DNA of 64,000 nt from Hyalangium gracile (GTDB lineage Bacteria; Myxococcota; Myxococcia; Myxococcales; Myxococcaceae), in NCBI RefSeq assembly GCF_020103725.1, contig NZ_JAHXBG010000029.1:1-64000 (forward strand), in the 5' to 3' direction. A program made the position numbers and the translations under genes. The notes under the pieces are model-generated. The model had not been told where the DNA came from, did no database searches, and was given only the letters and a program-made list of their open reading frames with translations. Positions 11,589 through 23,612 of the stretch are shown here, piece by piece (position 1 is the stretch's first letter; every line of letters starts with the position of its first letter).

Positions 11589-12968
11589 ATGGCGACGGAG
11601 CTCCACTTCGACTGCGGCACGCTGGTTGCGCCCACGCTCCCGGATGATGCCCGGTTGCGGGCGCTCTTCCAGAAAGACGCCCGTACAGGGGTATATCGGG
11701 CGGCGGCCTGGCGCTACCGGGAGGCGGTGCTGCGGCTGCGGGAGCTGGGCGAGCCGTACGAGGACCGGGCGCGGCGCTTCGAGCCGGTGGACCTGAAGCT
11801 GACGGTCCCCATCGAGCCCTTCCCGCACCAGCGCGAGGCGCTCGAGGCCTGGCGGCAGGCGGGCAGCCGGGGGGTGGTGGAGTTGCCGACGGGCTCGGGC
11901 AAGACGCTGCTGGCGGTGCTGGCCATCGCGCACCTGAAGCGGCCCACGCTGGTGGTGGTGCCGACGCTGGACCTGATGGCGCAGTGGCAGCAGGTGCTGG
12001 AGAAGCACCTGGGGGTGAAGGTGGGGCTGCTGGGCGGAGGGGTGATGGACCGGCAGCCGCTGACGGTGACGACGTACGACTCGGCGACGGCGCAGACGGA
12101 GTTCCACGGCAACTGCTTCGGCCTGCTCATCTGTGACGAGTGCCACCACCTGCCAGCGCCGAGCTACCGCTTCATCGCGGAGGGCTCGCTGGCGCCGTAC
12201 CGGCTGGGGCTGTCGGCGACGCTGGAGCGCACGGACGGAGGCGAGCGCGTCTGCGAGGAGCTGCTGGGCCCCCGGGTGTACCACGTGGACATCCGCGAGC
12301 TGCAGGGGCGCTACCTGGCGCCGTACGAGGTGCAGCGCATCGAGGTGCCGCTGAGCCCCGAGGAGAAGGCAAGGTACGACGAGGCGCGCGCTCTCTACAT
12401 CGGCTTCCTGAGGAAGAACGGCATCTCCCTGGCGGCGCCGGAGGGCTTCGCGAGGTTCCTGGCGCAGAGCCAGCGCAGCGACGAGGGCCGCGCGGCCTAC
12501 CGGGGCTACCGCGAGCAGAAGCGCATCGCGCTGACGTCCTCGGCGAAGATGGACGTGCTCTGGCACATCCTCATGAAGCACCGGGAGGACCGGGTGCTGG
12601 TCTTCACGGAGGACAACGAGACGGTGTTCACGCTGGCGCGGCGCCTGCTGCTGCCGGCCATCACGCACCACACGACGGTGCCCGAGCGCAAGGCCCTGCT
12701 CACCGCCTTCGCGAGCGGAGAGCTGCCGGTGCTGCTCACCTCGAAGGTGCTCAACGAGGGCGTGGACGTACCGGACGCGCGCGTGGGGGTGGTGCTCAGC
12801 GGCAGCGGCAGTGTGCGCGAGCACGTGCAGCGGCTGGGACGCATCCTCCGCCAGCGGCCGGGAAAGCGCGCGCTCCTGTACGAAGTGTGCTCGGCGCAGA
12901 CGGCGGAGAGCGGCATCAGCGAGCGGCGCAGGCAGCACCGGGCCTACCAGGAGAGCGAGCCGTGCTGA
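11589..12968 (+). CDS. XPB-type SF2 DNA helicase
   Basis: 459 residues from the ATG at 11589; the frame stays open far upstream but only as antisense of rmuC. SF2 motifs: Walker A PTGSGKT (about residue 100), DECHH box (about 182), SATLERTDGG (motif III), and motif VI QRLGRILRQRPGK near the end. An N-terminal damage-recognition-like region precedes the helicase core, as in short prokaryotic XPB proteins. In XPB homologues the helicase opens DNA around lesions. The next gene is a DUF790/Bax1 protein with a 7-base overlap, matching the archaeal XPB-Bax1 repair pair. Confidence 0.88.
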   Translation: MATELHFDCGTLVAPTLPDDARLRALFQKDARTGVYRAAAWRYREAVLRLRELGEPYEDRARRFEPVDLKLTVPIEPFPHQREALEAWRQAGSRGVVELPTGSGKTLLAVLAIAHLKRPTLVVVPTLDLMAQWQQVLEKHLGVKVGLLGGGVMDRQPLTVTTYDSATAQTEFHGNCFGLLICDECHHLPAPSYRFIAEGSLAPYRLGLSATLERTDGGERVCEELLGPRVYHVDIRELQGRYLAPYEVQRIEVPLSPEEKARYDEARALYIGFLRKNGISLAAPEGFARFLAQSQRSDEGRAAYRGYREQKRIALTSSAKMDVLWHILMKHREDRVLVFTEDNETVFTLARRLLLPAITHHTTVPERKALLTAFASGELPVLLTSKVLNEGVDVPDARVGVVLSGSGSVREHVQRLGRILRQRPGKRALLYEVCSAQTAESGISERRRQHRAYQESEPC

Positions 12969-14176
12969 CCCGGGACCTGCTGCTCTTCCGAGTCCGGGAG
13001 GGAAGGCTGCGCCCCTCCTTCATCAAGCGGGACGATGCGGAGCTGCTGGCGCTGGCCCGGGAGCTCATCGCCGAGGTGGACGGAGCGAAGGGCCAGACGC
13101 GGGACGACGTGGAGGAGACGCTCTCGCTCAGGGCCGGCGCCTTCACCCGTCCCCGCGTGGCGAGAGGGCTGGTGAAGCTGCTGCTGGACCGGGCGCAGTT
13201 CGACGAGGCCGTGGAAGGCGTGGCGCAGACACGCTGGGAGCGCTTCCAGCTCGCCGCGCGGGTGCTGCGCGAGCTGCCCCCGGACGCATCCGTGGAGGCG
13301 TACGAGGCCCGGCTCGCGGAGGCATTGCCGGCGCCGCTGCCCGACATCCGCGAGGCGCTCTATGCGGACCTGCCAGGTCACCGTCGCCTGCTGGGCTGGG
13401 AGGTCCTCACGCCACCCGACCTGCTGGATCGCTACAACCTGGCGCTGGCGCAGGGCCCGCTGCTCGGAGCAAGACGCCTCACCCTGCGCGCGCGGTCACC
13501 GGAACTGCTGCGCGTGAGGAAGCTGCTGCGCTGGCTGAAGTTCTGCCGGCTGGTGGCGGAGGTGCGTCGAGACGGTGAGGACTGGGCCCTGGAAGTCGAA
13601 GGTCCAGGGGCACTGCTCTCGTTGCAGAAGAAGTACGGGCTGCAGCTGGCGAGCTTCCTCTCGGTGGTGCCGGTGCTGGAGCGCTGGGAGCTGATGGCGG
13701 AGGTAGAGGCGAGCGCCCGCAAGCGGGCCACGCTGGTGCTGGACCACCGGGATCCGCTGGTGTCGCTGCTGCCGGCGGCGCTCGGCCACATTCCGCCCGA
13801 GGTGGCCACGCTGGCGGAGGGCTTCGAGGACGCGGAGTGGGAGCTGGACCTCACGCCGCTGCCGCGCCACATGGGAGCCGCCGGGCTGTGCGTGCCGGAC
13901 CTCACCTTCCGCCACCGGAAGAAGCGGCGCGAGGTGGCGCTGGAGCTCTTCCACGCGTGGCATGCGGGGCCACTGGAGCGAAGGCTCCGGGAGCTGCGCT
14001 CCAGACCGGACCCGGGGCTGCTACTGGGAGTGGACCGGGCGCTGGCACGGGGCGAGGAGCGGGAGGCGCTGGAGGCCCACCCTCAGGTGGTGCTCTTCAA
14101 CGGATTCCCCTCCGCGCGGCGACTGCGCGAGCGTCTGACCCGGCTCGTCGAGGAGCCAGGGCCGGCAGGAGCCTGA
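12962..14176 (+). CDS. DUF790/Bax1-like nuclease, XPB partner
   Basis: 404 residues. The GTG at 12962 gives the characteristic N-terminus LTRDLLLFRVREGRLRPSFI and overlaps the helicase stop by seven bases. The C-terminal part has a PD-(D/E)xK-like nuclease core: PDLTFRH (Asp about 312) then REVALELFHAWH (Glu about 327) as the presumed metal ligands, followed by a later FNGF. In archaea Bax1 is a structure-specific nuclease that binds and stimulates XPB (family knowledge). The translational coupling here argues for the same complex in this bacterium. Confidence 0.85.
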   Translation: MLTRDLLLFRVREGRLRPSFIKRDDAELLALARELIAEVDGAKGQTRDDVEETLSLRAGAFTRPRVARGLVKLLLDRAQFDEAVEGVAQTRWERFQLAARVLRELPPDASVEAYEARLAEALPAPLPDIREALYADLPGHRRLLGWEVLTPPDLLDRYNLALAQGPLLGARRLTLRARSPELLRVRKLLRWLKFCRLVAEVRRDGEDWALEVEGPGALLSLQKKYGLQLASFLSVVPVLERWELMAEVEASARKRATLVLDHRDPLVSLLPAALGHIPPEVATLAEGFEDAEWELDLTPLPRHMGAAGLCVPDLTFRHRKKRREVALELFHAWHAGPLERRLRELRSRPDPGLLLGVDRALARGEEREALEAHPQVVLFNGFPSARRLRERLTRLVEEPGPAGA

Positions 14177-17867: not shown

Positions 17868-18908
17868 TCACGCATGCCGGAGGATGACGAGGCGGTCCGT
17901 ATCGATCGCTTCCTTGATGACCGACGGCAGGCTCTCGAGCGTCACGAGGTTGTCGCTGGGTGGGTGACCCAGGCAGATGCCGGAGTCCACCACCTGGAGC
18001 GTGGCCATGTTGACCACGGAGATGAAGCGCTCGTCCATGAAGGTGAAGATGACCTCCAGGTTGTCACGGCCTAGCACGCGGGCGCTGCGCATCCTCGCCC
18101 CGGCGGCCTCCAGGGCCAGCTCGGCGCGAGCCATCGCATCCTCCTCCCAGACGCGCCGCTGTCGCCCTCCCCTCTGCGCCTGCGCCCCGGGCTGGGCCTG
18201 GGGCGGGCGCTGGGCCTGAGCCTGGACGTGCTGGCGCGCTCGCTCCACCACCTCCTCGCGCCTTCGCTGCTCATCCTGGCGCATGCGCAGCTCCCGCATC
18301 TCGCGCTCGGCCAGAGCCCGCTCGTCGGCGAGAGCCCTCAGGACCCGCTCGGCCTCGGGGCGCCCCTGCTCGGCGACAGTCCCCAGATGGGGGCGCAGCT
18401 CCGCGGGCGCCGCGGGGATGCGGAGCCGGCGTGACACCCCCTCCAGCAGGGCAAAGGCGAAGGCCGAGCGCAGCGTGGCGGGCACACCCTTGACCTGGGC
18501 CAGCGAGGCCTCCTCCTCGAGCGCCCGCCGCGCCGCCTCCTCCGCCTCGCTCTCGAAGTCGAGCGAGTCGAAGAGCAGCTCACCGGAGTGCCAGCGCCGG
18601 GTCCTGCAGGGCGTGAGCCGGGCAGGCTCCTCCTCGGGGAGGAAGTGCACGCGCTCCGCGATGGAGCCCTCGCGCACGAGCCGCTCCCCCACGAGGTGCC
18701 CGCGCACGGAGGGCAGCGCCTCCAGGGCCTCGGGCTCGGCGGGCCCCAGGGCGGTCGCGTCACGGCCCTTGATGCGGAACCGGTACCAGCCGGGTGTAGC
18801 GGGCTCGGTGGCGAGCCGCAGGCGACGGTCCGCGGCGTGGAGGAAGGCGCCGCCGAAGTACGGCAGCACCCGCTCCTCTTCCTTGCCCAGGAACTTCCGG
18901 TAGTCCAC
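17868..18908 (-). CDS. unrecognised coiled-coil protein of the Ro-like operon
   Basis: 346 residues from a GTG at 18908 with GGAGG six bases upstream. I do not recognise the family. The N-terminal 130 residues are beta-rich. A charged coiled coil follows (about 180-250, EMRELRMRQDEQRRREEVVERAR) with a Gln/Pro/Arg linker (RPPQAQPGAQAQRGGR). A C-terminal alpha/beta domain (about 255-346) contains VLGRDNLEVIFTFMDERFISVVNMATLQVVDSGICLGHPP. It lies nine bases after the TROVE gene and next to the JAMM gene, so a shared role in RNA handling is inferred from context. Confidence 0.65.
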   Translation of the reverse strand: MDYRKFLGKEEERVLPYFGGAFLHAADRRLRLATEPATPGWYRFRIKGRDATALGPAEPEALEALPSVRGHLVGERLVREGSIAERVHFLPEEEPARLTPCRTRRWHSGELLFDSLDFESEAEEAARRALEEEASLAQVKGVPATLRSAFAFALLEGVSRRLRIPAAPAELRPHLGTVAEQGRPEAERVLRALADERALAEREMRELRMRQDEQRRREEVVERARQHVQAQAQRPPQAQPGAQAQRGGRQRRVWEEDAMARAELALEAAGARMRSARVLGRDNLEVIFTFMDERFISVVNMATLQVVDSGICLGHPPSDNLVTLESLPSVIKEAIDTDRLVILRHA

Positions 18909-18917
18909 GCCTGCCTC

Positions 18918-20720
18918 CTACGCGGTAGCGCTCTTCACGATGGCTCCCGTCGGCGTGAGCTGGAGCAGCGGCGTGCGCATCACGCGCTCGACCCAGCCCG
19001 ACTGCGGCGCGCCACCGGCGGCCACCGGCGCGTCCAGGAGCGCCTTGAGCACCCGCGGCACCTGATAGGGATCATTGAAGCTGTCCACGGACACCTCGCT
19101 GAAGGGCACCTTGAGCTGGTTGGCGGCGCTCTTCACCGTGCTGCCGCGCGCATGGGACACCGAGACGAGCATCGCCAGCGCCGAGACGGCGTACCCGCAG
19201 TCCCGGAAGGCGCGAGCGAACTGGTCACCCGCCTCGCCCGCCTCGTCGCCCACCACGATGGTCACCAGACGCGCCGTGGGAGGGAACGTGACGCCGGCCT
19301 GGTGCAGCGCGCGCACCGCCGCCGCGTGCATGGTGCCGCCGCTGGCCTTGATGTCCTTGAGCATGTGCTGGACGGCGGTGCGCGACGGCGCCTTGGGACG
19401 AAGCACCGTGCCCACGGTGTCGAAGGTGGCGATGTGCAGCTTGTCCATCGGGAAGCCGGCGAGGATGCGCGTGAGCGCCTCCTTGGACTGCTCGATGGCG
19501 CCTTCCATGGAGCCTGACTTGTCGATGAGGAACATGACCCGCACATCCGCCTCCGTCGTTGCCTCGGCGACGGCCTTGCGCGCGGCGTTGTCGGCGGCCT
19601 CCTCCAGCTTCTCTCGTAGCTCCTTGTTGCGGACGTTCTTCGCCACGTTCAGCGCCCGCTGGTCCGTGGACTCGGCCACCGCCTTCTCCCAACGAGCCCG
19701 GATCTCCGGCTCGGCCATCAGCCCCAGCTCCTCCAGCGTGGGCGTCAGCATCCGGATGTCCCGGTCGGACAGCGAGGGAAGCAGCGCCACCATGATGGCG
19801 GGCGTGAGCCCCACGTCCTTGGGCAGCCGGCCCACCACCTCCTTGTAAGTGAGCTTCTGCGACTCGATGGCCTCGCAGATCTCAGCCTCGGAGAGCCCGT
19901 CGAAGCGCTCGCTCTTGGCCAGCTTCAGGTTGGTGAGCCCCACGCTACGGTGTCCGCCCGCCGCCTGCTTCTGCTTCCAGCCGAGGATCTCGAAGAACGC
20001 CTGCGACTCGGGCTTGTACCCGGCCTTGCGCGCGATCTTCTTGATGGTCTCCTTGAAGCCTGCCTTCACCAGGCCGGTGAGCATGGCCGGGTTCTTCTCG
20101 CGGATCGCCAGCCACCGGGTGGCCGCTCGCTTCCAGCGCCCGAGCGGCGGCTTCTTCGAGCCCGGGTCGGCGAAGCCCGCCTTGCGGTTGAGCGCGGCGA
20201 TCTCCGGCGTCTCCAGCAGCTCGGCCACGCGAAGCACGGCCTTGGGCGTGAGCATGCGCGTGGACTTCTTCTCGTAGTGCAGCAGCATCGCCTCGCCGAT
20301 GGAGCGGAAGTCATCGTCGTGGAAGGCGACGGAGCCGTCCTCCTCGCGCACCGGCTGCCCGGAGCGGCTCTGCACCAGCATCAGCGCGGCGCAGGCGACC
20401 TTGAGGTCGCGCCACTCCGTCTGGGTGAGCGCGTAGGAAGAGAAGTGCGCCATCAGGTCCTGGTTGAGCTGGTAGATCTCCAGCAGGCGCCGGTAGAGGT
20501 TGACGGCAGCCGGGACGAAGAGGCCGGGAGGCACACGCACCGCGTTGGCGGGCACGGCGACGCCGCGCTTCCTGGGAGCAGGCTGCCAGACGTTGCGGAC
20601 GCTGAGGCCGGGGCGGTTGTGCCACAGGTGCGCCGAGGAGCTCAGAACCAGATCGAGCAGCTTCTCGGCGGGGCCCAGCTGGGCCTCGGGCAGCAGCGGT
20701 GGGTTGCGCGGGGTGTTCAT
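18918..20720 (-). CDS. Ro60/Rsr-like TROVE and VWA protein
   Basis: 600 residues from the ATG at 20720, with GGAGGG eight bases upstream; a farther start adds 21 improbable residues. The N-terminal two thirds is helical and resembles TROVE HEAT-like repeats (TWRD-like segments, LTPKAVLRVAELLETPEIAAL, GLTNLKLAKSERFDGLSEAEICEAI). The C-terminus is a von Willebrand A domain with MIDAS motif FLIDKSGSM (about 400) and SGGTMHAA/VVGDEAGE downstream. This is the Ro60/Rsr architecture: a ring that binds misfolded RNA and Y RNAs. Two Y-RNA-like genes lie just upstream on the same strand, which strongly supports the assignment. Confidence 0.8.
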   Translation of the reverse strand: MNTPRNPPLLPEAQLGPAEKLLDLVLSSSAHLWHNRPGLSVRNVWQPAPRKRGVAVPANAVRVPPGLFVPAAVNLYRRLLEIYQLNQDLMAHFSSYALTQTEWRDLKVACAALMLVQSRSGQPVREEDGSVAFHDDDFRSIGEAMLLHYEKKSTRMLTPKAVLRVAELLETPEIAALNRKAGFADPGSKKPPLGRWKRAATRWLAIREKNPAMLTGLVKAGFKETIKKIARKAGYKPESQAFFEILGWKQKQAAGGHRSVGLTNLKLAKSERFDGLSEAEICEAIESQKLTYKEVVGRLPKDVGLTPAIMVALLPSLSDRDIRMLTPTLEELGLMAEPEIRARWEKAVAESTDQRALNVAKNVRNKELREKLEEAADNAARKAVAEATTEADVRVMFLIDKSGSMEGAIEQSKEALTRILAGFPMDKLHIATFDTVGTVLRPKAPSRTAVQHMLKDIKASGGTMHAAAVRALHQAGVTFPPTARLVTIVVGDEAGEAGDQFARAFRDCGYAVSALAMLVSVSHARGSTVKSAANQLKVPFSEVSVDSFNDPYQVPRVLKALLDAPVAAGGAPQSGWVERVMRTPLLQLTPTGAIVKSATA

Positions 20721-20797: not shown

Positions 20798-20945
20798 AAG
20801 GAAGCGCCCGAGTGAAGAAGCCCTGTTTTCAGACTCGCGCTCTAACCTCTGAGCTATCTCCCGATGGAGTCGGGAGAGCCGGATTCGAACCGGCGACTTC
20901 GAGTTCCCAGTGCTTGTATGGCCTCTTCGGCCGGACGCGGATTCG
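20798..20945 (-). ncRNA. YrlA-like Y RNA, copy 1 (tRNA mimic)
   Basis: About 148 nt; ends are approximate. In minus-strand order it has a 5' outer stem with hairpin (20912-20932, GGCCGAAGAGGCCATACAAG core), a T arm GCCGG-TTCGAAT-CCGGC (20878-20894), a closed 7-bp acceptor stem TCTCCCG/CGGGAGA with loop ACTCCAT (20857-20877), then T8-A9 and a D arm (20839-20854), then a 3' strand (20805-20822) that closes the outer stem. T arm, acceptor and D arm are thus in circularly permuted order, as in bacterial YrlA RNAs. The anticodon-arm region (CTGAAAA) is present but pairs poorly. It shares its outer module with copy 2. Confidence 0.75.
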
Positions 20946-20956
20946 TCAGAAGAAGA

Positions 20957-21100
20957 TTGAAACGCCCGAGTGGGGAAGCCGATTGACGTCTCGAGTCGAA
21001 ATCGAGTGCCTATCCATTAGGCTATCCCGTCATATGGTGACGGGAGTTGGAGTCGAACCAACATGAGGGCTTGTATGGCCTCTCCGGCCGGGCGCTTCAA
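20957..21100 (-). ncRNA. YrlA-like Y RNA, copy 2 (permuted tRNA-Arg mimic)
   Basis: About 144 nt. A 12-bp outer stem pairs 21089-21100 with 20957-20968 (one G-U). Next come a hairpin with the shared GGCCATACAAGC (21069-21089), a T arm GTTGG-TTCGACT-CCAAC (21046-21062), then TCCCGTC-A-CCA-TAT-GACGGGA (21025-21045). The last element is a 7-bp acceptor stem whose 3' half carries a discriminator A and an encoded CCA before the 5' half begins. Then TA, a D arm (21008-21022), one base and an anticodon-like arm CTCGA-TTTCGAC-TCGAG (20990-21006) with UCG, an Arg anticodon. All parts are in permuted order. Confidence 0.8.
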
Positions 21101-21254
21101 AAGCGTTCGCGAGCAGCGCGGCGTGTCGCCATCACCGTCTCGCCTATGCCTGGAAGGACGCGAGGCCCGCGGCGCGCCTGACACGGCATTTTCGGGGGGA
21201 TTTTCCAGGGCGTCCGTGCCGCCCAGACCCGCCGGGTAGTAGGATACCCGCCCC
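21101..21254. other. divergent promoter region of the Y RNA/Ro locus and kinase
   Basis: Between the Y RNAs (leftward) and the kinase gene (rightward). It must hold at least the Y RNA promoter, but no convincing -35/-10 pair is seen by eye. Confidence 0.4.
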
Positions 21255-23612
21255 ATGTCTCTGGAAACGGGTGAACAGTTCGGCCGCTATGCGCTGGAGT
21301 CCCAGCTGAGTCGGGGCGGCATGGCCGAGACCTGGCGCGCCCGGCTGCTGGGCGAGGCCGGCGTCACCAAGCCCGTGCTCATCAAGAAGGTGCTGCCCGA
21401 GTTCGCCACCGACGAGGCCTTCATCGCCATGTTCATCAGCGAGGCGCGCATCTCCGCCACGCTGTCTCACGGCAACATCGCCCAGGTCTACGACTTCGGC
21501 CGGGTGGGCGGGGACTACTTCCTGGCCATGGAGTACGTGGACGGGCAGCCGCTCCACCGCATCACCAAGCGCGCGCGCCGCTCGGGCCTGGGCACCCTTC
21601 CCGCCCCCATCGCCACCTTCATCGCCTTGGAGATGTGCCGGGGCCTGCACTACGCCCACACCCGTAAGGATGCCACCGGCCAGCCCCTGGGCATCGTCCA
21701 CCGCGACATCGCCCCGGACAACGTGCTCGTCAGCTACGAGGGCCAGGTCAAGATCGTCGACTTCGGCATCGCCAAGGCGCGCCAGCTGCGCGGGTTCGAC
21801 ACCGAGCCGGGGATCGTGAAGGGCAAGTACCTCTACTTCTCTCCCGAGCAGGCCCGGGGCGAGCAGGTGGATGCGCGCACGGACGTGTGGGCCACGGGCA
21901 TCGTCCTCTACGACATGCTCTGTGGCCGGATGCCCGTGGTGGATCCTCCGTACGTGGCGGTCCCCAAGCTGGCCCGGGGTGAGTTCCCCCGCCCCTCCGT
22001 GCTGAACCCCTCCCTGCCAGCGGAGCTGGACGCCATCGTGATGCGTGCGCTGTCCATCCATCGCGACGAGCGCTACGAGTCCAGCAACGCCTTCGGAGAC
22101 GCGCTGGCGGAGTTCCTCTACAGCACGACGCCACGCTTCTCCGCGCTGTCGCTCTCCCACTTCGTCCAGGAGCTCTTCCGAGAGGATCTGCTCAGCACGG
22201 GCCACGAGGTACAGGTGCCCCAGTCGTTCCGGGAGCAGCTGGCCCAGTGGAAGGGGCAGCTCGCCACGTCCCCTTCTTCGCCTGGGCTGTCCCCCACGGT
22301 TGCCCCGGGCACTCCTACTCCGTCCCCGGCTCCGCTGCCCGCCCAGCCCTCGCGCCTGGCGCACTACCTGGGCGTGGGGCTCGGTGCGGCGCTCGCGGGA
22401 GCCATCCTCGCCGTCGCCTTCATCAAGGCCACGCTGCCCGCGATGGTCGATGCGCCCGCGCCTCCTCCCACCGTGCCGCCTTCGCCCCAGGTTGCCGTCG
22501 CACCTCCGCCGGTGGAGCCGGCACCGCAGCCGCCTCCCGAAGACACGGCTCCACCGGAGGCCACACCCGAGCCCGCCTCAACTCCAGAGCCTGAAGCGCC
22601 CCATGTTCGCGCCTCGGCCTCATACCCGGTCGAAGCCATCCGGCTCGATGCGCGGCAGGACGTGATCAACATCGGCGACGTCGCGCAGAAGCTCTCGCTG
22701 GAGCCGGGAGCCACCTACCGCATCTCCGAGCCCAAGCCTCCCCACGGCAGGGCCCCTCTGTTCTTCTGGCTGTCGGGCGCGGAGCTGCGCGCGAAGGATG
22801 GCGTGGGCGTCCTCTCCCAGCGGCCCGTGCAGGTGAAGGGCGCCCAGGAGCTCAAGGTCTTCCTGCTCGGCCCGCTCCACGCCGAGTCCCGCCCTCGCGA
22901 AGTGCTCGTGGAGAACGTCCAGGCGAAGACCCGCCAGCGGCTCGCGGTCAGGCCCGACACGACAGCCAGCCTGGAGCGGGCCTTCGAGCTCAAGAACCTG
23001 GACCCGACCTCCACCTATGAGCTGACCCTGGTTCCGCTCGAGAACGGTGCCTTCACCCGGGGAGCCACGGGCGGTGCGCTGGAGCAGATCGGCTGCGTCG
23101 GGCTCGCCGCGAGCGGGGAGAGCCCGGGAGGCAAGGAACCGGTGCCGCCCCAGGACCAGCAGTTCCTCCTGACGACGCAGTCGAGCCTGAACCTCTCGAA
23201 GGCCAGCAGCCTGCTCTGCGGCTTCATCGATGATGACCCCGCCGACAACCAGGGTGAGTTCCAGATCCGCATCGTCCAGTCGGGCGCGGGCCTGGAGTGG
23301 ACCAGCCCCTCGCCCTATGCCCTGGCGTTTCCCAAGGCCGGAGAGGTCAAACGCGTCTTCGAGCAGGCCCTGCGCCTCTTCCAGAAGAAGCAGTACGACG
23401 GAGCAGCGATCTTCGCCGAGCGGTGCATCTCCCTCGATTCGCAGGACGCGGACTGTCACCTGCTCGCCGGTGCCACGTACGCGTCGATCCCTGGCCGGGG
23501 CGACAAGGCCACCAGCCACTACAAGACCTTCCTGACCCTGGCTCCGACCCACTCACTCGCCGCCTCGGTCAAGCGAGACCTGGTAAAGCTCGAGCAACAG
23601 AGCAGCCCATAG
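21255..23612 (+). CDS. membrane Ser/Thr protein kinase
   Basis: 785 residues. The N-terminal Hanks-type kinase domain covers about 12-290: Gly loop LSRGGMAETW, catalytic HRDIAPDN (about 149), DFGIA, and SPEQARG in place of APE. A Pro-rich linker follows, then one membrane segment (about 375-397, YLGVGLGAALAGAILAVAFI) and a second Pro-rich stretch. The C-terminal 330 residues are likely outside the cytoplasm and end in TPR-like helices (QALRLFQKKQYDGAAIFAERCISL). This is the common myxobacterial receptor-kinase layout. A hairpin follows the stop codon. Confidence 0.9.
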   Translation: MSLETGEQFGRYALESQLSRGGMAETWRARLLGEAGVTKPVLIKKVLPEFATDEAFIAMFISEARISATLSHGNIAQVYDFGRVGGDYFLAMEYVDGQPLHRITKRARRSGLGTLPAPIATFIALEMCRGLHYAHTRKDATGQPLGIVHRDIAPDNVLVSYEGQVKIVDFGIAKARQLRGFDTEPGIVKGKYLYFSPEQARGEQVDARTDVWATGIVLYDMLCGRMPVVDPPYVAVPKLARGEFPRPSVLNPSLPAELDAIVMRALSIHRDERYESSNAFGDALAEFLYSTTPRFSALSLSHFVQELFREDLLSTGHEVQVPQSFREQLAQWKGQLATSPSSPGLSPTVAPGTPTPSPAPLPAQPSRLAHYLGVGLGAALAGAILAVAFIKATLPAMVDAPAPPPTVPPSPQVAVAPPPVEPAPQPPPEDTAPPEATPEPASTPEPEAPHVRASASYPVEAIRLDARQDVINIGDVAQKLSLEPGATYRISEPKPPHGRAPLFFWLSGAELRAKDGVGVLSQRPVQVKGAQELKVFLLGPLHAESRPREVLVENVQAKTRQRLAVRPDTTASLERAFELKNLDPTSTYELTLVPLENGAFTRGATGGALEQIGCVGLAASGESPGGKEPVPPQDQQFLLTTQSSLNLSKASSLLCGFIDDDPADNQGEFQIRIVQSGAGLEWTSPSPYALAFPKAGEVKRVFEQALRLFQKKQYDGAAIFAERCISLDSQDADCHLLAGATYASIPGRGDKATSHYKTFLTLAPTHSLAASVKRDLVKLEQQSSP

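What the first reader, a model, noticed from the sequence alone, without database searches (positions are those of the whole stretch)
20798..21100. Two tandem tRNA-mimicking Y RNAs next to a Ro60-like gene
Seen: two minus-strand units about 12 bases apart share a GGCC-hairpin-GGCCATACAAGC element and a 3' GGCTTC...CACTCGGGCG strand. Between these, each has T arm, closed acceptor stem, T8-A9 and D arm in permuted order. Known: bacterial YrlA Y RNAs have a Ro-binding stem plus a tRNA-like module of this permuted form and sit near rsr. Inference: these are YrlA RNAs bound by the 18918-20720 protein. I know of no description in myxobacteria of two different copies side by side.
Basis: partly seen in the sequence, partly recalled or inferred. 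Interest (0 to 1): 0.85.

Follow-up and report, generated by a model that had tools for sequence, protein, structure and literature searches.

The report
Y RNAs carrying fast-changing tRNA anticodons
Next to a Ro60-like gene in a myxobacterium lie two small RNAs that imitate a transfer RNA with its parts in rotated order; one carries a complete anticodon arm, and across related bacteria the anticodons of this RNA family change faster than neutral DNA while the stem that holds them stays fixed, which suggests they act as bait or decoys for enzymes that attack tRNAs.

Summary
Two structured RNAs lie at 21097-20960 and 20940-20802 (-), upstream of a gene whose model matches Ro60/Rsr structures end to end. 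Both are Ro-type Y RNAs with tRNA-like modules in permuted order. Copy 2 has the classical YrlA layout, opened where a tRNA has its anticodon loop. In 25 relatives all five anticodon-stem pairs show two-sided changes and 99% of cells pair. Most rsr-bearing Myxococcaceae carry several such RNAs. The 108 with an anticodon arm have 71 different loops that keep tRNA rules (Y32, U33, G36-G37), while positions 34-36 change 2-5 times faster than neutral proxies (P about 0.002, 0.002, 0.0002). A shared promoter (GTCAGG-N15/16-CGTC) precedes Y RNA units, an ECF sigma gene and an RtcB RNA ligase. I read this as a tRNA-damage regulon in which Ro holds a diversifying set of anticodon-bearing tRNA mimics, most likely decoys or bait for anticodon nucleases. 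Structure, family and promoter are shown by sequence; transcription, Ro binding and decoy action are inferred. Tandem Y RNAs are not new (Salmonella yrlBA).

The parts
20960..21097 (-). Y RNA copy 1 (type T1): Ro-type stem enclosing a complete permuted tRNA cloverleaf opened in the variable loop
20990..21006 (-). anticodon arm of copy 1: CTCGA-TTTCGAC-TCGAG, anticodon UCG at 20999-20997
   Evidence: ARAGORN calls tRNA-Arg(tcg) once the sequence is rotated; stem covaries at 5 of 5 pairs
21046..21062 (-). T arm of copy 1 (GTTGG-TTCGACT-CCAAC)
21025..21045 (-). closed acceptor arm of copy 1: TCCCGTC - ACCATAT - GACGGGA
21008..21022 (-). D arm of copy 1 (GCCTAATGGATAGGC), preceded by U8-A9 at 21024-21023
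21077..21097 (-). 5' strand of the Ro-type stem of copy 1 (outer 21097-21088, inner 21085-21077)
   Evidence: helix 1; local GGCC hairpin not supported
20960..20980 (-). 3' strand of the Ro-type stem of copy 1 (inner 20980-20972, outer 20969-20960)
20802..20940 (-). Y RNA copy 2 (type T2): classical YrlA layout, opened at the anticodon position (closing strands CTCG 20903-20900 and CGAG 20837-20834)
   Evidence: Rfam YrlA full-length 35 bits
20878..20894 (-). T arm of copy 2
20839..20854 (-). D arm of copy 2 (GCTCAGAGGTTAGAGC)
21157..21182 (-). promoter-like element GTCAGG-N16-CGTC, 59 nt before copy 1; the only match on either strand of the window
18918..20720 (-). Ro60/Rsr-like protein (600 aa; helical N-terminal part plus C-terminal VWA domain)
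   Evidence: Pfam VWA_2; Foldseek top nine matches all Ro60/Rsr
17868..18908 (-). orf346, conserved partner directly downstream of rsr, function unknown

Best explanation
What it is: two Ro-type Y RNAs upstream of a Ro60-like gene, preceded by a promoter element shared with an RtcB RNA ligase and an ECF sigma gene elsewhere in the genome. Copy 2 is a YrlA-type tRNA mimic. Copy 1 is a whole tRNA cloverleaf in permuted order, with a real anticodon arm and a sealed acceptor end. How it works (proposed): on tRNA damage the ECF sigma factor switches on a regulon of Y RNAs, rsr-orf346, RtcB and perhaps replacement tRNAs. The Y RNA stem docks on the Ro ring and displays a tRNA-like body that cannot be charged as it stands. 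Copy-1-type RNAs show an anticodon loop to anticodon-reading enzymes, most likely anticodon nucleases from competitors, phages or toxin-antitoxin modules, and so serve as decoy, sensor or bait. Because the attackers' anticodon specificity shifts, the anticodon diversifies while stem and body stay fixed. Shown by sequence: structure, co-occurrence, promoter element, anticodon hypervariability. Inferred: transcription, sigma-factor control, Ro binding, nuclease binding, decoy role.
For: Permuted cloverleaf: ARAGORN of 149 relatives tRNA after rotation, 1 unrotated (a tRNA-array hit), 0 shuffled. Covariation: 0 of 500 shuffles; anticodon stem 5/5 pairs with two-sided changes. tRNA rules in the loop: position 32 pyrimidine 96%, U33 82%, G36-G37 linkage Fisher P 5e-6 over 71 distinct loops, while 34-36 have 1.73-1.95 bits of entropy. 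Faster than neutral: steps per site 4.3, 5.0 and 4.0 at the anticodon against 0.8-2.6 at 4-fold and flanking sites, P 0.002, 0.002, 0.0002; pairwise 0.57 against 0.19. Family M: only one other column is as variable as the anticodon, four of five stem pairs invariant. Co-occurrence with rsr 74/1/2/68. Promoter element at 28 of 30 RtcB orthologues, 13 of 14 T1 and 37 of 42 M Y RNAs, and divergently at the ECF sigma gene. This RtcB was found only in rsr-bearing genomes. A competitive-inhibitor role for the YrlA tRNA-like domain was proposed in PMC7790460.
Against: No transcript, binding or nuclease data. No dedicated anticodon nuclease was found beside these genes. Copy 2 and several short Y RNAs have no anticodon arm, so decoy action cannot be the sole role. 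The loops are not enriched for exact copies of this genome's tRNA loops (7 found, 9.3 expected, P 0.88). In Salmonella, YrlA itself was not cut by the RecA-dependent tRNA nuclease (PMC7790460). The neutral proxies are imperfect: high-GC codon bias lowers 4-fold divergence, the upstream flank holds the promoter, and the trees were built from the same neutral sites, which lowers their step counts.
Confidence: 0.5

Rival explanations
1. Ordinary Y RNAs that tether Ro to an effector such as PNPase. The anticodon arm is only a structural prop and its loop drifts without selection.
For: Known role of Rsr and Y RNA in Deinococcus (summarised in PMC7790460 and PMC8394870). Short Y RNAs without tRNA features also precede rsr (L012, L021, L022, L261, L275).
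Against: Drift would not keep U33 and the G36-G37 linkage, nor make the anticodon change faster than flanking and 4-fold sites.
Confidence: 0.27
2. Latent tRNAs: cutting the acceptor loop, as RNase P and 3' processing would, turns copy 1 into a tRNA with the Ro-type stem as a giant nicked variable arm that could be charged and used in translation.
For: Copy 1 encodes A-CCA after the acceptor strand, as do 6 of 14 T1 RNAs in all. Rotated sequences pass ARAGORN.
Against: NCCA is absent from P, S and C types and rare in M (3 of 41). The acceptor arm is sealed by a short loop in most. Anticodons change between close species while the body stays constant, so body identity elements cannot follow.
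Confidence: 0.08
3. The loop is a short antisense guide that base-pairs with changing mRNA or phage targets.
For: Fast change restricted to a presented loop.
Against: The loop keeps tRNA rules at 32, 33 and 37, which guides do not need; only three bases vary freely.
Confidence: 0.05
4. Anticodon turnover reflects gene conversion or a mutational hotspot involving the genome's own tRNA genes, not selection.
For: tRNA genes offer donors; Y RNA anticodons within one genome usually differ.
Against: The anticodon stem does not change with the loop, and exact matches to this genome's tRNA loops are not enriched.
Confidence: 0.1

Closest known systems
YrlA (Rfam RF02553; Salmonella, PDB 6CU1)
   Same: Long 5'/3' stem plus T arm, closed acceptor and D arm in permuted order; near rsr. 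Copy 2 fits.
   Different: Described as D, T and acceptor arms only (PMC8394870), and the Rfam consensus has no hairpin between D arm and closing stem. Copy 1 adds a full anticodon arm and is opened in the variable loop.
Salmonella rsr-yrlBA-rtcBA RNA-repair operon (PMC7790460)
   Same: Two tandem Y RNAs, a Ro protein and an RtcB ligase under common control; response to tRNA damage there.
   Different: There one operon under RtcR and sigma54; here dispersed units sharing an ECF-type promoter element. Anticodon arms not described there.
Circularly permuted tRNA genes (algae, Thermofilum; PMC3978253, PMC3218864)
   Same: 3' half precedes 5' half with an intervening acceptor loop.
   Different: Those become working tRNAs. 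Here the ends form a long Ro-type stem, the acceptor is sealed, and CCA is not conserved.
Phage tRNAs with altered anticodon loops (PMC10264068)
   Same: Anticodon-loop change read as a response to anticodon nucleases.
   Different: Functional tRNAs evading cleavage, not sealed mimics in a Ro complex.

Membership tests
YrlA (RF02553) | permuted T arm, closed acceptor, D arm module | tested here: met
   both copies
YrlA (RF02553) | module opened at the anticodon position, no anticodon arm | tested here: not met
   met by copy 2; not met by copy 1, which has a covarying anticodon arm. Copy 1 is therefore not filed as YrlA.
YrlA (RF02553) | score above Rfam gathering threshold (69 bits) | tested here: not met
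   35.0 and 20.7 bits
Bacterial Ro-associated Y RNA | long stem formed by the 5' and 3' ends | tested here: met
   19 pairs, 90.9% of cells paired, 5 with two-sided changes
Bacterial Ro-associated Y RNA | genomic association with a Ro/Rsr gene | tested here: met
   74 genomes both, 1 rsr only, 2 RNA only, 68 neither
Bacterial Ro-associated Y RNA | physical binding to Rsr | not testable with these tools
   needs pull-down or CLIP
Ro60/Rsr (TROVE) | helical ring plus VWA fold | tested here: met
   top nine Foldseek hits are Ro60/Rsr, 1yvp E 9.3e-7, 2nvo E 4.6e-6 over 509-582 columns; model confidence is low, pLDDT 63.5, TM 0.33-0.41
Ro60/Rsr (TROVE) | match to the Pfam TROVE profile | tested here: not met
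   only VWA profiles match; hence called Ro60/Rsr-like
Functional permuted tRNA gene | conserved CCA and processing to a charged tRNA | tested here: not met
   CCA not conserved; charging not testable

The most novel reading that the evidence does not exclude
Myxobacteria keep a repertoire of Ro-docked tRNA mimics whose anticodons diversify under selection: an RNA decoy or sensor panel against anticodon nucleases, inside an ECF-sigma-controlled tRNA-damage regulon with RtcB. tRNA bodies are plugged into the Y RNA stem opened at the anticodon loop, the variable loop or, in distant relatives, the acceptor end.
Probability: 0.4. Interest if true: 0.92.

Novelty: new variant of a known kind. Interest (0 to 1): 0.8.

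Why it matters
Why bacterial Y RNAs imitate tRNAs has no settled answer. An imitation that keeps an anticodon arm and changes the anticodon faster than neutral DNA points to an enzyme that reads anticodons, and the promoter element shared with RtcB ties Ro to tRNA damage. It makes the question testable in the laboratory organism Myxococcus xanthus, whose species and genus carry the same loci. It also warns annotators: some distant relatives carry tRNA-like inserts in normal order that ARAGORN calls as tRNA genes.

Tried and rejected
A YrlA hit at G000:C3:144805 proved to be neighbouring genes of a 27-tRNA array. The local GGCC hairpin has no covariation. Exact copying of the genome's own tRNA loops is not supported. 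The strict promoter pattern is not enriched genome-wide (6 and 3 hits against 11 and 4 for the reversed pattern); it is meaningful only by position. Within-genome anticodons rarely coincide (1 of 78 pairs, 3.5 expected), but this is too weak to claim avoidance. No Ro relative was found in viral contigs with this query. The key papers on YrlA (Chen 2014, Wang 2018, Sim and Wolin 2018) are not held, so absence of earlier reports of an anticodon arm rests on a review, the Rfam model and ten text searches. PADLOC hits of the kinase at 21255-23612 to PD-T4-6 and mad6 most likely reflect the common kinase fold.

Full report
WHAT WAS CHECKED. On the minus strand two units lie at 21097-20960 (copy 1) and 20940-20802 (copy 2), 19 nt apart, followed by the gene at 20720-18918. 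Copy 1 folds far better than shuffles (z -6.0), copy 2 better (z -2.8). Rfam YrlA matches copy 2 end to end at 35.0 bits (E 6.2e-5) and copy 1 partly at 20.7 bits, both below the gathering score. ARAGORN finds no tRNA in the window.

ANATOMY. Both copies have a long Ro-type stem with the conserved strand NNACAAGC beside it. Copy 2 encloses T arm, closed acceptor and D arm and is closed by CTCG/CGAG, the two halves of what would be an anticodon stem: the classical YrlA layout. Copy 1 encloses T arm, acceptor closed by ACCATAT, U8-A9, D arm and then a hairpin CTCGA-TTTCGAC-TCGAG. This is a full cloverleaf opened in the variable loop. Rotated in silico, ARAGORN reads it as tRNA-Arg(tcg) with all four arms.

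RELATIVES. The neighbouring protein has relatives (71-90% identical) in 75 of 145 genomes of the order. Public records name the genera as Hyalangium (same genus as the window), Archangium, Myxococcus, Pyxidicoccus, Corallococcus, Citreicoccus and others, with more distant relatives in Labilithrix, Nannocystaceae and two proteobacterial MAGs. Upstream of these genes the same stem strands recur around varied inserts. On 25 full-cloverleaf relatives, 89% of cells pair, 22 of 40 pairs show two-sided changes, and no shuffle of 500 does as well; sliding the partner by one column drops pairing to 46-49%. The anticodon stem has two-sided changes at all five pairs and 99.2% of cells paired. A covariance model finds five copies in the window's genome, namely the two here, two flanking a phosphatase gene upstream of a second rsr on contig C3, and a weaker one on C9, and copies in 76 of 145 genomes of the order. 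In the phylum set the only further genome with a match has one weak hit. rsr and Y RNA occur together: 74 both, 1 and 2 alone, 68 neither. Rotated, 119 of 149 are called tRNA by ARAGORN; unrotated 1 (a tRNA-array sequence), shuffled 0. The rotation was guided by T and acceptor stems, so this is partly circular for those two arms, not for the D and anticodon arms.

THE TANDEM PAIR is an old unit: a copy-1-type RNA (T arm GTTGG...CCAAC, anticodon stem CTCGA/TCGAG) about 20 nt before a copy-2-type RNA recurs in Archangium and Myxococcus relatives, usually away from rsr. In the window's genome and in G083 it sits directly before an extra rsr copy.

THE ANTICODON. Of 163 distinct matches, 108 have an anticodon arm at the expected place, with 71 different loops. 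Over the distinct loops, position 32 is a pyrimidine in 96% and position 33 is U in 82%. G37 follows G36 as in real tRNAs (P 5e-6). Positions 34-36 are near maximal entropy; 35 anticodons are seen. In family M (44 sequences) only one other column is as variable as the anticodon, and four of five stem pairs never vary. In three sets with a tree from flanks and coding sites, the anticodon changed 4.0-5.0 times per site against 0.8-2.6 for neutral proxies (P 0.002, 0.002, 0.0002); nine genomes of one set have nine different anticodons. Pairwise distances, which need no tree, agree: 0.57 against 0.19 at 4-fold sites and 0.19-0.27 in flanks. Weak points: few genomes, codon bias at 4-fold sites, a promoter inside the upstream flank, and trees fitted to the neutral sites. 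The loops are not exact copies of the genome's own tRNA loops.

PROTEINS. The 600-aa protein has only VWA profile matches, and sequence profiles find no Ro structure, but a model (pLDDT 63.5) puts Ro60 and Deinococcus Rsr at the nine best places of the PDB over the whole length. orf346 follows it by 12-60 nt in most loci, down to 39% identity, has no family match and a confident model without a PDB match. In Myxococcus and in the second locus of this genome a Pnkp/PrpE-like phosphatase lies between two Y RNAs before rsr.

PROMOTER AND REGULON. A two-part element GTCAGG-N15/16-CGTC was seen by eye before family M and then tested elsewhere: it precedes 13 of 14 T1, 37 of 42 M and 10 of 14 S RNAs, and none of the 24 P RNAs, which lie inside the operon; 87 of 158 in all against 0.04 in base shuffles. 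It occurs once in the 64-kb window, 59 nt before copy 1. The same element precedes 28 of 30 orthologues of one RtcB ligase (0.02 in shuffles); in this genome it is 8 nt before the RtcB start. This RtcB was found only in rsr-bearing genomes. Divergent copies lie between the Y RNA and an ECF-type sigma gene in three genomes (66-81% identical). One copy lies 300 nt before a 27-tRNA array of this genome. Genome-wide the pattern is no commoner than its reverse, so its meaning rests on position. Spacing and form resemble ECF sigma promoters (general knowledge); control by this sigma factor is inferred.

INTERPRETATION. A Ro protein, tRNA mimics and an RNA ligase behind one promoter element point to tRNA damage, as in the Salmonella rsr-yrlBA-rtcBA operon, which responds to cleaved tRNAs (PMC7790460). 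The simplest reader of that sort is an anticodon nuclease, and the authors of PMC7790460 already proposed competitive inhibition for YrlA. Phage tRNAs show anticodon-loop change to escape such nucleases (PMC10264068). The step from pattern to decoy is inference.

KNOWN AND NEW. Known: Ro-Y RNA complexes, permuted tRNA mimicry, tandem Y RNAs, linkage to RtcB. New as far as could be checked: Y RNAs with a complete anticodon arm, opened in the variable loop; hypervariable anticodons; the ECF-type promoter element shared with RtcB; and in two distant relatives tRNA-like inserts in normal order (L274 Arg GCG, L268 Ile TAT). The main papers on YrlA could not be read.

Noticed in passing
window 17868-18908 (-): orf346, a family without any Pfam, NCBIfam or PADLOC match, directly downstream of rsr in nearly all loci including distant relatives; confident model, no PDB fold match.
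   Followed up: partly
L274 about 2854-2927; L268 about 2223-2295: In distant relatives a Y RNA stem encloses a tRNA-like body in normal, non-permuted order with an anticodon arm (Arg GCG with a 3' A-CCA; Ile TAT); ARAGORN calls these as tRNA genes.
   Followed up: partly
L004 12094-15268 (G000 contig C3): A 27-gene tRNA array about 5 kb downstream of the second rsr, with a match to the Y RNA promoter element 300 nt before it.
   Followed up: partly
L012, L021, L022, L069, L261, L275: Y RNAs with the same Ro-type stem but only one or two short hairpins in place of the tRNA-like body.
   Followed up: no
L269 1863-2932; L227 8445-9084; L273 2257-2736: Arrays of three to six tandem Y RNAs upstream of rsr; the first in L273 has the anticodon CTA, which would read UAG.
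   Followed up: no
L227 8445-8598 (-) (same as L033 3364-3517): Y RNA with a long variable arm as in class II tRNAs (Leu, Ser).
   Followed up: no
G000 contigs C1, C3, C4, C16: About five RtcB ligase genes in one genome (two of them reported as two hits each); the C4 gene carries the Y RNA promoter element.
   Followed up: partly
window 12140-14176 (+): DUF790/Bax1-type endonuclease gene.
   Followed up: no
window 21321-23612 (+): Ser/Thr protein kinase gene divergent from the Y RNA unit; not seen beside rsr in the few other loci annotated.
   Followed up: no
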